NCBI GenBank assembly: GCA_958296135.1
Contig: CATQHZ010000001.1
Location: forward strand, 3,348,001-3,412,000
Direction: 5' to 3'
DNA from: an uncultured Poribacteria bacterium
GTDB taxonomy: Bacteria; Poribacteria; WGA-4E; WGA-3G
Length of the DNA: 64,000 bases
Positions 36,015 to 40,354 of this stretch are shown here, piece by piece. The notes under the pieces were generated by a model. That model worked only from the letters and a program-made list of their open reading frames with translations, searched no databases and was not told where the DNA came from. Position 1 is the stretch's first letter. Every line of letters starts with the position of its first letter. Both the position numbers and the translations under genes were made by a program.

Positions 36015-37754
36015 ATGTCCTACGATAGCTTAACCTTACGTCTTGTTGCAGAAGAACTGCGCGAAACGCTTTTGGGCGGCACCTTCAGGCATATTGAACA
36101 AGCAAACCCGACAACCTTTTCGTTCAAGGTTGTTCGCGGGGTTGATACGCGCTGGCTGACAATCTCCGCGCATTCGGTGCACGCGCGCGCGCATCTCATC
36201 AACCGGCCACCGCCCGGACAGAAGCAGTCCTATCTCGCCGATTTTCTCACAACGCACCTCAGGCGTGGCATTATCACCGCAATCGAACAACTCGGCTGGG
36301 ATCGGATTCTGAAAATCACTGTCCAACCCGTATCCGATGAACCCATTCAGCCATCGCCGAAGGCGCTCATCGCGGAATTTATGGGGAAGCATAGCAACAT
36401 TATCCTCATAGATGCAATGGACGACAGAATCTTGGAGAGCCTCAAGCATATTGACGAAACGCAAAGCCGGCACCGGGAAGTCTTGCCAGGGGAAACCTAC
36501 TGTTTGCCGCCGCAACAAGAGAAGGCAAATCCATTGGCACTCGATAATGCAGGGTTTACTGCCATCGTTGAAAGTCTCCCACAGGTAACTTGGCGCGGGC
36601 TGTTTAACAACATCGATGGACTCAGTCCGACACTCGCCAAGGAGATTGTCGCGCGGGCAGAAAAGATGCCGCCCTGGGAAGCGTATCAGCAGGTCATCGC
36701 CTATCTTGACGCGGCGCGCGTTGCCCCGCAACTGCTCCTTGATGAAACCACACCGATTGCCGTCTCTCCACTGCCGCTGCACCAATGGCCCAATGCTATC
36801 TGCCAAACGTTTGACACGATGAGCGCGGCACTCTGTGCCTATTACGAAGCGATTACTTTGAAAGAGACAATGGCATCGGAGCGGCGCACGCTCACGCAAG
36901 CGTTGGATAAACAGCAAAACCAGCTGCAACGAAAAACGAAAGGGCTGCAGACAGATTTAGCCCGCGCCGAAAAATCGGAGGATTACCGCATTCAAGGCGA
37001 ACTCCTCCTCGCGAATTTGCACAACATCACCCGAGGACAAACGGAAGCAACGTTGCAAAACTACTACAGTCCGGCATTGGAGACACTCTCGATTCCGCTG
37101 AATCCGGAGCAGAGCCCCTCCGACAATGCACAGGCGTACTTCAAGAAATATACGAAAGCGAAACGCGGACGGACGCGCATCCTCCAACTCATCGCAGAAC
37201 TGGAGGCAGAAGAGAAAGTGCTGCAGCTGTACGCCGCCCAACTGGAAGCGGCGGCGACGCTAGACGCACTGCAGCAAATTCGCACGGCGTTCATCGCGAA
37301 CGGGTATCTCAAGGCGCATCAGCGGAAAAAGCAGAAACAGCCGGTAAGCGAAGGACCCTTCCGAAAATACACCTCCGCGAACGGGTTTCAGATGTATGTC
37401 GGCAGGAACAGCCAGTCAAACGATTTGCTTCTGCGCCAGATTGCGAAACCGCGTGATATGTGGCTGCACGCGAAGCAAATCCACGGCTCGCATGTCATCA
37501 TCCGAAACCCGGAAAACCGCCCGGATATTCCGATGCCGACGTTGTTGCAAGCGGCGCAACTCGCCGCCTATTACAGCAAAGCGCACCACGCGAGTTATGT
37601 CCCAGTGGACTACACATGGGCGCGGTATGTGGTGAAGCGGAAGGGGAACGTCGCGGGGTATGTCCATTATACACATGAGAAGACGTTGTATGTGGAACCG
37701 GCACTGCCATCGTCAAAAGAAGATGAGACGAAACGCAATAATAGGACCCGGTAG
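36015..37754 (+). CDS. rqcH: NFACT family protein RqcH (ribosome quality control)
   Basis: A 579-residue NFACT protein, the bacterial relative of eukaryotic Rqc2. It binds stalled 50S-peptidyl-tRNA complexes and directs C-terminal alanine tailing. It has an N-terminal NFACT-N domain (LIAEFMGKHSNIILIDAMDDRILESLKHI, quoted in part), a long coiled coil (about residues 285-430) and an NFACT-R domain with FRKYTSANGFQMYVGRNSQS, DMWLHAKQIHGSHVIIR and YVPVDYTWARYVVKRKG. ATG 36015 has AGGAGG upstream. The family was earlier annotated as fibronectin-binding protein. Confidence 0.93.
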   Translation: MSYDSLTLRLVAEELRETLLGGTFRHIEQANPTTFSFKVVRGVDTRWLTISAHSVHARAHLINRPPPGQKQSYLADFLTTHLRRGIITAIEQLGWDRILKITVQPVSDEPIQPSPKALIAEFMGKHSNIILIDAMDDRILESLKHIDETQSRHREVLPGETYCLPPQQEKANPLALDNAGFTAIVESLPQVTWRGLFNNIDGLSPTLAKEIVARAEKMPPWEAYQQVIAYLDAARVAPQLLLDETTPIAVSPLPLHQWPNAICQTFDTMSAALCAYYEAITLKETMASERRTLTQALDKQQNQLQRKTKGLQTDLARAEKSEDYRIQGELLLANLHNITRGQTEATLQNYYSPALETLSIPLNPEQSPSDNAQAYFKKYTKAKRGRTRILQLIAELEAEEKVLQLYAAQLEAAATLDALQQIRTAFIANGYLKAHQRKKQKQPVSEGPFRKYTSANGFQMYVGRNSQSNDLLLRQIAKPRDMWLHAKQIHGSHVIIRNPENRPDIPMPTLLQAAQLAAYYSKAHHASYVPVDYTWARYVVKRKGNVAGYVHYTHEKTLYVEPALPSSKEDETKRNNRTR

Positions 37755-37812
37755 ACGCAAAAACGTATAATAGAGCCCGGTAGGCGCGGTTGCAAACTGC
37801 GCTAAATTTTTG

Positions 37813-37840
37813 TTGACATCATTTGTGATTGTGTTATATT
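37813..37840 (+). promoter_or_regulatory. Sigma70-type promoter for the interrupted secreted-protein gene
   Basis: A perfect TTGACA (37813-37818), a 16-base spacer and TATATT (37835-37840) lie before the ATG at 37923, which has AGGAGG upstream. Confidence 0.8.
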
Positions 37841-37922
37841 ATTCTCCAATTAACATAGGACAGACGCTGCAAGAACCCCGTGCTGGAACCTAACGCTGGC
37901 GCGGTCCTAGTAGGAGGCATCC

Positions 37923-38390
37923 ATGATGAAACGATTTATTACAGCATCCCTGCTCTGCGTCCTCACGCTTTTTGGGACAGGCGCGACGCAGGCCTTAGAC
38001 GAATGGGTATTCGTTGACATTGAACCCTACGCAAACACGAAACTGGTCGACCACGAATGGTGGACGCTCGCCAAGGGGGACAGCACTTTCTCCCGCCTGC
38101 CAATCGGCGAGGTAGAGGATTTTGACGGCCCCGATAAAAAGGTCCAATTCCAGATTATTGACGGGGCCATCGTCATTTTCGGCACTAACGCGGCGAAGTG
38201 GCCGAAGGCAGTCGAAGACATCGTCGTCGATGGCAAGGCGAAGTTTATCTATTTCCTCCATGCAACCGGATGGGAACAGAACGGCGTGCCGAGTTACAAA
38301 TTCGTCATGAACTATCAGGATGGCAAAAAGGAGGACGTTCCTAGCTTCCGAAAATCGAGACACATCGTGATAAAAGCGGATTTATCGTGA
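37923..38390 (+). pseudogene. Secreted protein, 5' half, interrupted by a TnpB element
   Basis: A 155-residue reading starts with a signal peptide (MMKRFITASLLCVLTLFG, cleavage near TQA/LDE). It continues as a beta-rich domain (EWVFVDIEPYANTKLVDHEW..., KFIYFLHATGWEQNGVPSYKFVMNYQDGKKEDV), quoted in part only. After GKKEDV (base 38340) the sequence changes to mobile-element DNA and ends in SFRKSRHIVIKADLS. The missing C-terminal part is at 39924-40234 in a frame that rejoins exactly if the element is removed. The intact protein would be about 245 residues, function unknown. The truncated product may still be made from its strong promoter. Confidence 0.75.
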
Positions 38391-38431
38391 TAAACGCCAA
38401 CATAAGTGCTATACGAAGTGTTACCGTGTTG

Positions 38432-38533
38432 GGCTCGGTCGAGCGTGCAGTGTTATTCGGGAGACCGAATAACACCTCTTCGGCTCAGCAGATCGTGCAG
38501 TGTTTTTTGTAATAACAAAAAACACATCTTCGG
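38432..38533. repeat. Two tandem 50-bp units with compensatory hairpins
   Basis: Units start with GGCTC at 38432 and 38482 and share CGTGCAGTGTT, then AACAC and TCTTCGG. The hairpins are GTGTTATTCGG-GAGA-CCGAATAACAC (38450-38475) and GTGTTTTTTGT-AATA-ACAAAAAACAC (38500-38525). Each is a perfect 11-bp stem. The outer five pairs are conserved, while the inner six differ completely yet remain paired, which indicates selection on structure or a mechanism that copies one arm from the other. Confidence 0.9.
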
Positions 38534-38684
38534 AAACCGGTTTGGAAACCTTTGCAAACCTGCCTACACGAGCTGCAGCAGCGTGTATTCACGCTCGCCT
38601 ACACGCCCGCCCGCCAATGATATCACCGCCAGCGCATTGCCCATCCTAGTGATATAGGCGAAACACGGCAGACGGGAACACCTC

Positions 38685-39767
38685 ATGAAAACGCATAATA
38701 TTGCACTGCGCCCGACAACGGCACAGGTTCAACAATTTCATCAGCACGCGGGATACCGCCGATTTGTCTATAACTATGCTTTGTCCGATTTCAAAGCAGG
38801 GTTAGCTGAAGGCGAATGGCGGAATGGGCGCACGCTACGCACTCGGTTTAATGCCGTAAAAGATACGCAGTTTGACTGGCAGAAACCGCTCATCGCCCGC
38901 GTGGCATCACATGCCTTTGATGATTTTAACACGGCGTGTCAACGGTGGAAAAACAAGCTGTCCAAGTTTCCAAAGTATAAGCGGAAGTCGGGTAAGCAGT
39001 CGTTTCGCGTTGACAATAAACGCAATGCGATAAAATGTGAAGGTAAACGGCTTTACCTACCGAAGATAGGTTGGGTGCGGACGTTTGAAGCGTTGCGGTT
39101 TAAAGGTGACGTGATGCGCGTAGTGATTAAGAAGCGAGGGCATCGTTGGTTTGCATCGGTGCTCGTCGAAACCCTGTCAATGGTTTCCAAGCCCGATTTA
39201 CGTGGTTTGCCTACCGTGGGCATCGATGTCGGTATCAACACCCTCGCCACTTGCTCCGATGGACGCACTTTTGAAAACCCGCGCGCCTTGGCCCGTTTTC
39301 AACGTCAACTCCGCCGTGCGCAACGCGCCCTAAGTCGTTCAGTCTATCGCAGTCAGAATTGGTGGAAGAAGAAGGAACGTGTTGTCCGTATCCACTATCG
39401 TATCGCTTGCATCCGCGAAGACGCGCATCACAAGGCCAGCACGGCGATTGTGAAAGGTGTCTCAGCAATCGGTATAGAATCTCTGAACGTGAAAGGCATG
39501 ATGAAAAACCGCCGGCTTGCGAAGGCATTATCAGACGCGGCACTCGGTGGATTTCTCTCCAAGTTGAAGACGAAAGCACAGGCACTTGGCGTGCATATTG
39601 AGGAAGCCTCTCAGTGGTTCGCTTCATCGAAGACGTGCAGTGCTTGTGGACATAAGAAGGATACCCTCACGTTATCGGAACGTGACTATCACTGCAGCGG
39701 GTGTGGATTGCGGATAGACCGCGATTTGAACGCTGCAAGGAATTTGGAACCCTCGCCGCTGGTTTGA
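38685..39767 (+). CDS. tnpB: TnpB, RNA-guided endonuclease of IS200/IS605-type element
   Basis: A 360-residue TnpB. The N-terminal helical region has ALRPTTAQVQQFHQHAGYRRFVYN and the RuvC-like nuclease residues are all present: Asp in GIDVGIN (about residue 185), Glu in IGIESLNVKGM (about 263) and Asp in RIDRDLNAARNL (about 347). The zinc finger CSACG ... CSGCG lies near 320-340. TnpB nucleases use an RNA made from the element's 3' end to cut DNA, helping the element persist. The enzyme therefore looks active. It has no tnpA beside it and no obvious strong ribosome site. Confidence 0.95.
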   Translation: MKTHNIALRPTTAQVQQFHQHAGYRRFVYNYALSDFKAGLAEGEWRNGRTLRTRFNAVKDTQFDWQKPLIARVASHAFDDFNTACQRWKNKLSKFPKYKRKSGKQSFRVDNKRNAIKCEGKRLYLPKIGWVRTFEALRFKGDVMRVVIKKRGHRWFASVLVETLSMVSKPDLRGLPTVGIDVGINTLATCSDGRTFENPRALARFQRQLRRAQRALSRSVYRSQNWWKKKERVVRIHYRIACIREDAHHKASTAIVKGVSAIGIESLNVKGMMKNRRLAKALSDAALGGFLSKLKTKAQALGVHIEEASQWFASSKTCSACGHKKDTLTLSERDYHCSGCGLRIDRDLNAARNLEPSPLV

Positions 39768-39923
39768 CGGAGAGGTAAAACGCCTGTGGAGCTCGTGTCA
39801 GACCTCAATGTAAACGCATTTCAGTGTGTTTCGGAGGCAGTGAGTGTTGAAGCAGGAACTTTAGAAATCGGACAAACTCATACGGACTTGTCCAGATATG
39901 TCTCGATTTCAGGGAACAGGAAC
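39768..39923 (+). ncRNA. Candidate omega-RNA (reRNA) of the TnpB element
   Basis: The 156 bases between the tnpB stop and the element's right end have no frame but strong folding potential. AAACGCA (39812-39818) pairs with TGTGTTT (39825-39831). GAAATCG (39864-39870) pairs with CGATTTC (39904-39910) around GGACAA (39870-39875)/TTGTCC (39888-39893). A GTTGAAGCAGGAAC segment at 39846 resembles right-end sequences of TnpB elements. In known TnpB systems the scaffold is at this place and the guide is the DNA just beyond, here beginning TAGAGATGATCTCC. This is inference by position and structure. Confidence 0.5.
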
Positions 39924-40234
39924 TAGAGATGATCTCCGGTTTTAACTCCGATGATTGGTGCCACGAAGGAACTGAGCTCAAGGACGATAATTCTGTCTGG
40001 GGCTGGATTAAAAAGGAAGGCCCGCCCTGTGGGCACGCCGGGCTCATTACCACGAAGTGGGAAAACCCGCGACCCGATGTCAAAATCGCGACGATAGACG
40101 CTATCTCTCTTGAATTAGGCTCCGTGCCTGTCATTCCGGCGATTACGTTAGGCGAGGCGACGCTCGCCGTAGAACCAGCGGAGAAATTGGCTATCACGTG
40201 GGGCAGTCTGAAACGCGTTCGTGATGAACTCTAG
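39924..40234 (+). pseudogene. Secreted protein, 3' half, downstream of the TnpB element
   Basis: About 101 residues, from EMISGFNSDDWCHEG to the C-terminus LKRVRDEL, continue the protein begun at 37923. It carries GHAGLITTKWENPRPD and TIDAISLELGSVPVIPAIT, which read as the C-terminal beta-strands of the same fold. It has no promoter or ribosome site of its own and begins right at the element's right end. The gene ends in a classic terminator at 40254-40293. Confidence 0.75.
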
Positions 40235-40253
40235 GAGTCTGTTTAACGCAAGG

Positions 40254-40293
40254 AAGCGCGAGACTGGATTTCGTTCCACGGCTCGCGCTTTTT
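40254..40293 (+). terminator. Rho-independent terminator of the interrupted gene
   Basis: AAGCGCGAG (40254-40262) and CTCGCGCTT (40282-40290) form a perfect 9-bp stem with a loop of about 19 bases, followed by a T-run (TTTTTG). Confidence 0.85.
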
Positions 40294-40354
40294 GTTTGCA
40301 TCCTTAACATGAACGGCGGGAAACCATAGAAATCTGCGCAAAACGAAAAATTTA

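What the first reader, a model, noticed from the sequence alone, without database searches (positions are those of the whole stretch)
38341..39923. TnpB element with terminal inverted repeats has cut a secreted-protein gene, and its excision would restore the frame
The frame before 38340 (…GKKEDV) and after 39924 (…EMISGFNSDD) rejoin as D-V-L-E-M-I-S with no duplicated target bases. The element has 15-bp inverted repeats at its ends (one mismatch) and only tnpB. IS200/IS605 elements move without target duplication, but they usually lack true terminal inverted repeats, so this may be a distinct tnpB family mobilised in trans.
Basis: partly seen in the sequence, partly recalled or inferred. Interest (0 to 1): 0.72.

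Follow-up and report, generated by a model that had tools for sequence, protein, structure and literature searches.

The report
Jumping gene targeting ribosome-binding sites
The window holds a small mobile DNA element with an RNA-guided cutting enzyme whose family inserts just behind the ribosome-binding sequence AAGGAG, so most copies examined sit between that sequence and a gene's start codon, while the copy reported here landed in a look-alike site inside a gene.

Summary
A tnpB-only element does interrupt a secreted-protein gene, but its ends are 38334 and 39919 (1586 bp), not 38341/39923. Eight copies in the genome share these ends. All 14 homologues aligned read E-E-L-E at the break, so the empty site is AAGGAG|GAACTAGAG: no duplication, frame kept.

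The unexpected part is the target. In three subfamilies with mapped left ends, the flank ends in GAG at 19 of 19 sites and AAGGAG, the Shine-Dalgarno core, at 12 of 19. At 28 of 33 distinct sites a start codon follows 4-12 nt past the right end, against 5 of 32 for sister subfamilies. Empty sites in relatives show insertion exactly between AAGGAG and the spacer (right side only). Downstream genes include mutS, rplA and rpmI. The right end is a covarying, omegaRNA-like RNA.

Best reading: IS200/IS605-like TnpB elements whose target, and by analogy TAM, is the Shine-Dalgarno sequence. The transposase was not found: the genome (94.7% complete) shows two Y1 proteins, both resembling RAYTs more than IS200 TnpA.

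The parts
37923..38333 (+). First part of the interrupted gene (secreted-protein-like, no Pfam or NCBIfam match)
   Evidence: ORF; homologues in 30 of 59 genomes, own included
38328..38333 (+). Target motif AAGGAG left of the element
   Evidence: Last six flank bases AAGGAG at 12 of 19 mapped sites, GAG at 19 of 19
38334..39919 (+). The element, 1586 bp
   Evidence: Shared ends of 8 copies, homologues, empty site of a related element
38334..38415 (+). Left end, conserved in the 8 copies (one or two bases differ)
38450..38475 (+). Perfect 10-bp hairpin in a 50-bp repeat unit, present in 4 of 8 copies
38500..38525 (+). Second perfect 10-bp hairpin with a different stem, present in 4 of 8 copies
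38685..39767 (+). tnpB, 360 aa
   Evidence: full-length frame in 8 of 8 copies
39761..39919 (+). omegaRNA-like scaffold and right end (model R1)
39864..39910 (+). Right-end hairpin, 9 nt from the end
   Evidence: Predicted in 15 of 15 copies folded
39911..39919 (+). Right tip AGGGAACAG
39920..39935 (+). Expected guide region, 16 nt of flank
   Evidence: Inference by analogy with ISDra2 (PMC8612924, passages)
39920..40234 (+). Second part of the interrupted gene; has an internal ATG at 39929, 9 nt after the element

Best explanation
It is a tnpB-only element of IS200/IS605 type. Its family inserts immediately 3' of AAGGAG, the Shine-Dalgarno core, without target duplication or loss, so most copies examined lie between the ribosome-binding sequence and the start codon of a host gene, in the gene's direction. 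In the window the motif lay inside a coding sequence (AAGGAG-GAACTAGAG-ATG), so the gene was broken. Shown here: ends, target motif, empty sites, start-codon association, full-length TnpB frames, a structured right-end RNA. Inferred from known relatives: a Y1 transposase acting in trans cuts single strands 3' of the motif; TnpB with its omegaRNA uses the motif as TAM and the first bases of the host gene as guide, recutting emptied sites so that the element is restored. Further inference, weaker: the element's purine-rich tip can serve as a substitute Shine-Dalgarno sequence.
For: Ends shared by 8 copies. Flank motif at 19 sites of three subfamilies: AAGGAG 12, GGAG 16, GAG 19; no conservation further left or in the right flank. 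28 of 33 distinct sites have a start codon 4-12 nt past the right end, against 2 of 22 and 3 of 10 in two other end types (Fisher p 1.6e-8). Downstream proteins match profiles from near their first residues. Empty sites: L237 against L169 on both sides, and 29 of 29 element-free orthologues read AGGAG before the spacer; 26 element-free loci against 4 filled for L142, right junction only. TnpB matches ISDra2 TnpB over nearly full length. Right-end RNA: 20 of 35 pairs with changes on both sides, no shuffle of 500 as high.
Against: No IS200-type TnpA found. No Rfam match. Left-end folds differ between copies, so a left hairpin is not established. 5 of 33 sites have no start codon (L009, L014, L019, L145, L158) and two G029 starts are GTG only. 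Flanks CGAGAG, AAAGAG and AATGAG are poor Shine-Dalgarno matches. In the window 7 of 11 intergenic AAGGAG sites precede a start anyway, so the excess over motif plus survival is modest (p 0.007). Pairing of the tips with a canonical (recalled) 16S tail is middling: -4.9 to -6.1 for three subfamilies against a random median of -3.2 and a 5% level of -7.6, and a control family with no start-codon link scores -7.5.
Confidence: 0.85

Rival explanations
1. The motif is only a short purine target. The ribosome-site pattern is what survives once insertions inside genes are lost, with no adaptation to translation. This rival concerns the meaning of the pattern, not the target itself.
For: In the window 7 of 11 intergenic AAGGAG and 15 of 49 intergenic RRGAG sites precede an open start. 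The window copy, and by eye L014, lie inside genes. Tip energies are not exceptional.
Against: 28 of 33 exceeds 7 of 11 modestly (p 0.007) and 15 of 49 strongly (p 1.7e-10). Insertions in front of rplA and rpmI suggest that translation continues; that these genes are single and needed is recalled, not tested.
Confidence: 0.45
2. A serine recombinase (IS607-like), not a Y1 transposase, moves the element in trans, with the AG shared by both junctions as crossover core.
For: Both junctions read AG (left flank GAG, right end ACAG); three resolvase-domain genes in the genome; no IS200-type TnpA found.
Against: Conserved motif reaches 4-6 bases and only on the left; right-end hairpin in 15 of 15 copies; IS607 elements are recalled to use GG; TnpB scores higher with the IS200 than the IS607 model (274.5 against 211.9 bits, both below their cut-offs).
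Confidence: 0.1
3. AAGGAG is the first part of the element rather than its target.
For: It is present beside 12 of 19 mapped copies.
Against: Element-free loci carry it: 29 of 29 read AGGAG, 23 of 26 CAGGAG, 2 CAGGGG and 1 GAGGAG. It varies between copies while the next bases of each subfamily's left end vary little.
Confidence: 0.02
4. One reading: an element 38341-39923 with true terminal inverted repeats, of a distinct tnpB family.
For: A 15-bp inverted repeat with one mismatch exists; the flanks at those ends are also in frame.
Against: Ends contradicted by 8 copies and 14 homologues; repeats are subterminal.
Confidence: 0.02

Closest known systems
ISDra2 (IS200/IS605 family), Deinococcus radiodurans; PMC8612924, passages seen
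   Same: TnpB homologue; insertion 3' of a fixed motif without duplication; right-end structured RNA; tnpB-only relatives are known
   Different: Target and TAM TTGAT there, AAGGAG flank here; tnpA present there, none in these elements; copies here mostly sit before start codons
IS608 (IS200/IS605 family), Helicobacter pylori; PMC5934647, passages seen
   Same: Short motif kept in the left flank, subterminal right hairpin, right cleavage site at the tip
   Different: Target TTAC there; guide sequences 5' of the hairpins are shown there and were not established here
IS607 family (recalled)
   Same: Carries tnpB; no target duplication
   Different: Serine recombinase and GG target there; here a left motif GGAG and a right hairpin
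Non-autonomous tnpB relatives with right-end RNA only (general notion, recalled)
   Same: The M subfamily (L018-L023, L025) keeps the right-end RNA and ends but showed no tnpB-sized frame
   Different: M copies also lie next to AAGGAG, 6 of 6 with a left end

Membership tests
IS200/IS605 family | Insertion 3' of a specific tetra- or pentanucleotide kept in the left flank | tested here: met
   GGAG at 16 of 19, GAG at 19 of 19; empty site with both flanks
IS200/IS605 family | No target duplication | tested here: met
IS200/IS605 family | No terminal inverted repeats | tested here: met
   The 15-bp repeat lies 18 and 10 bp inside the ends
IS200/IS605 family | Subterminal hairpin at the right end | tested here: met
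   15 of 15 copies, 9 nt from the end
IS200/IS605 family | Subterminal hairpin at the left end | tested here: inconclusive
   Predicted folds differ between copies
IS200/IS605 family | Moved by a Y1 (HUH) TnpA | tested here: inconclusive
   No tnpA in the element; two Y1 proteins in the genome, RAYT-like; genome 94.7% complete
TnpB / OMEGA RNA-guided nucleases | TnpB domains | tested here: met
   Pfam OrfB_IS605, TNB domain, HTH; NF040570 above its cut-off; aligned with ISDra2 TnpB including the RuvC motif regions (catalytic role of residues recalled)
TnpB / OMEGA RNA-guided nucleases | Structured RNA from the right end | tested here: met
   Covariation; no Rfam match; expression not tested
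TnpB / OMEGA RNA-guided nucleases | RNA-guided cleavage next to a TAM equal to the target | not testable with these tools
   Needs a bench assay
IS607 family | Insertion between GG by a serine recombinase (recalled) | tested here: not met
   Junctions are GAG|element and ACAG|flank with a variable first flank base; no recombinase gene seen in the window element

The most novel reading that the evidence does not exclude
A lineage of RNA-guided TnpB transposons has taken the Shine-Dalgarno sequence as target and TAM and carries a substitute Shine-Dalgarno in its right tip. It can lodge in front of needed genes at little translational cost, with a guide that reads the host gene's translation start, so TnpB or the non-autonomous copies could also act on expression of that gene.
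Probability: 0.45. Interest if true: 0.8.

Novelty: new variant of a known kind. Interest (0 to 1): 0.64.

Why it matters
The two well-studied relatives use TTGAT and TTAC. A family whose motif is the ribosome-binding core gives a simple route to tolerable insertion in gene-dense genomes, offers a predicted TAM (AAGGAG) that can be tested directly, and raises the question whether an omegaRNA guide that spans a start codon has a regulatory side effect.

Tried and rejected
A CTAG or AGGA target duplication: chance overlaps in the window copy; other copies and the empty sites show none. Element starting at GAGGACGTTC, considered: rejected because the GAG is target. Rfam: no match in 37700-40300. 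A scan of genome contigs with the TnpB alignment gave one remote relative, 31% identity. The left junction at the L142 locus could not be read: the four filled copies have another left side. G029/G080 tnpB copies L090-L097 turned out to have other ends. That the right tip is a strong anti-Shine-Dalgarno match was not supported by energy. A guide sequence 5' of a left hairpin was looked for by eye only and not established.

Papers: ten searches ran; nine bear on novelty (76 was on IS608). From their listings I recognised no paper on Shine-Dalgarno targeting by TnpB elements. Listings were capped (15 of 76, 15 of 16), only open-licence papers are held, and I read passages of three papers only.

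Rows left out of the count: of 76 model-matched loci, 23 with neither right-end motif (listed), duplicates of the same or an orthologous site, and one partial T-family copy (L089). L138 was left out as the same place as L170. Loci L160 and L161 were barred from the first class by name in the script; their printed ends do not hold its motif. The null comes from one window with genes approximated by long ORFs.

Full report
Observation. The window (G000:C2:3348001-3412000) carries a 360-aa TnpB at 38685-39767. Pfam finds OrfB_IS605, the Cas12f1-like TNB domain and the OrfB helix-turn-helix. NCBIfam gives guided_TnpB (252.2 bits, cut-off 100). Apart from an AI-designed nuclease, the closest solved structures are ISDra2 TnpB chains (8bf8, 8h1j; E 1.9e-46). 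The element occurs eight times in the genome at 87-100% identity, with a TnpB frame of 359-382 aa in all eight.

Ends. In the eight copies the sequence from GACGTTCCTAGC to TTTCAGGGAACAG is shared, with differing flanks beyond it except for a left motif (four copies have a different or shorter stretch after the left end). In window coordinates the element is 38334-39919. The interrupted gene has matches in 30 of 59 genomes, own genome included. I aligned the 14 homologues for which loci were returned; 14 of 14 read E-E-L-E at the junction, as expected if AAGGAG (38328-38333) is followed by GAACTAG (39920 onward). So the insertion neither duplicated nor removed bases. The 15-bp inverted repeat is subterminal and its right arm belongs to the right-end hairpin.

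A second, non-autonomous subfamily. Seven loci (L018-L023, L025; 452-803 bp in the six with a left end) share the right-end RNA and, in six, the left box CTAG...CCGAAAATC. Their longest inner ORF is 207 aa and shorter elsewhere, unlike TnpB by eye; they were not run against Pfam. All six left flanks are AAGGAG. The joint left pattern has 14 hits in the own genome and none in the 57 other genomes of the family.

Start codons. Right flanks of these two subfamilies carry a start codon 4-12 nt after the element at 12 of 15 sites, counting the internal Met of the window gene. Nine downstream proteins and one short ORF were scanned; six match profiles from near their first residues: MutS, S-methyl-5-thioribose-1-phosphate isomerase, an indolepyruvate-decarboxylase-like enzyme, a macrodomain protein, a PepQ-like peptidase and a LolD-like ATPase; the others match weakly or not at all. 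The insertion thus separates the Shine-Dalgarno sequence from the start codon.

Other genomes. Of 76 matched loci that I took, 30 end in AAGGAACAG or AAGGAGCAG, 23 in ACAACGG and 23 in neither. After merging orthologous sites and adding the 15 sites of the own genome, 28 of 33 sites of the first kind have a start codon 4-12 nt on (25 ATG), against 2 of 22 for ACAACGG and 3 of 10 for the T family of the own genome (Fisher p 1.6e-8). Downstream genes include rplA (L182), rpmI (L189), a heptose-kinase-like gene (L142) and a LarA-like gene (L168), matched from near their first residues, and secD (L146), whose profile match starts only at residue 149. That ribosomal protein genes, usually single and needed (recalled), tolerate the insertion suggests that translation continues.

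Target. In genome G029 five copies of a related element (L166-L170; 364-aa TnpB frame in four, one deleted) have left flanks AAGGAG three times, TAGGAG and AATGAG, and start codons 8-10 nt downstream in five of five, two of them GTG. Over the three subfamilies the last flank bases are AAGGAG at 12 of 19 sites, GGAG at 16 and GAG at 19, with little conservation further out and none on the right side.

Empty sites. For L142, 30 orthologous loci were read: 4 are filled (...GAAGGAACAG|AC[GT]CGTCATG) and 26 have no element, with CAGGAG (23), CAGGGG (2) or GAGGAG (1) before the spacer; the left side of the filled loci is different, so only the right junction counts. For L169, 30 loci were read: one filled, 29 without the element, all 29 with AGGAG before the spacer. 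L237 has nearly the same left sequence and reads ...gctacataacaaaggag|GAAACATAATG where L169 reads ...gctacacgaaaaaggag|TAGTTCC...GAAGGAACAG|GGAACATAATG; L256, L257, L263 and L264 also have a similar left side. This fixes target, ends and lack of duplication on both sides. The 30 loci are the best of 56 and 53 matching genomes.

RNA. On 37 aligned right ends (11 of them the model's own sequences), 20 of 35 pairs change on both sides and 90% of cells pair; no shuffle of 500 reaches these values and slid structures fall to 33-51% (the alignment is fitted to the model, which favours it). The right hairpin stands 9 nt from the end in 15 of 15 copies. Rfam has no match.

Mechanism. In IS200/IS605 elements TnpA inserts a single strand 3' of a fixed motif without duplication, and TnpB uses that motif as TAM with an RNA made of the right end plus 16 nt of flank (PMC8612924, passages; IS608: PMC5934647, passages; PMC7290912, passages). 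The mapped features fit, with AAGGAG in place of TTGAT or TTAC. Not shown: the transposase, a left hairpin, RNA expression, cleavage.

How special is the start-codon pattern? In the window 7 of 11 intergenic AAGGAG, 15 of 49 intergenic RRGAG and 66 of 439 RRGAG sites overall precede an open start. Target motif plus loss of insertions in genes explains much of the pattern; the excess over 7 of 11 is modest (p 0.007). The substitute Shine-Dalgarno idea rests on the tips and on the genes involved; pairing energies do not single the tips out, and a control family scores as well.

Verdict. By anatomy a tnpB-only element of IS200/IS605 kind with a target that nine capped literature searches did not turn up. 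The window copy itself is an off-site hit inside a gene.

Noticed in passing
38450-38475 and 38500-38525; also inside the right-end RNA of L018-L023: Palindromic hairpin modules with differing stems, usually followed by CATCTTCGG or CTCTTCGG, some nested in one another (L021, L022). They look like small repeats inserted into hairpin loops.
   Followed up: partly
L016, L017, L025, L026, L011, L082-L086: A second tnpB family (T) in the own genome, about 1.46 kb, ends AGGGCTCGG...GGGAGCGG; its left flanks are not conserved and 3 of 10 sites have a nearby start codon.
   Followed up: partly
L080, L081 (G000:C2:3734478 and 4791155): Two RAYT-like Y1 proteins; no link to the element was tested.
   Followed up: no
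L109 (G000:C2:3644484): A CRISPR-like array of about 30-bp repeats (GTTTCAATCTCGTTATCGAGAGGCTTTTCA) with spacers; one spacer happens to begin with bases like the element's right tip.
   Followed up: no
L152, L165, L172-L177 and other loci: Elements with the same right-end RNA model but ending in TACACAACGG; their target was not worked out. 23 of 76 examined loci.
   Followed up: no
L142, L143, L183, L206-L209: Filled sites whose left side differs from the empty orthologues; in L142 an HU-like gene lies upstream, suggesting a rearrangement between copies.
   Followed up: partly
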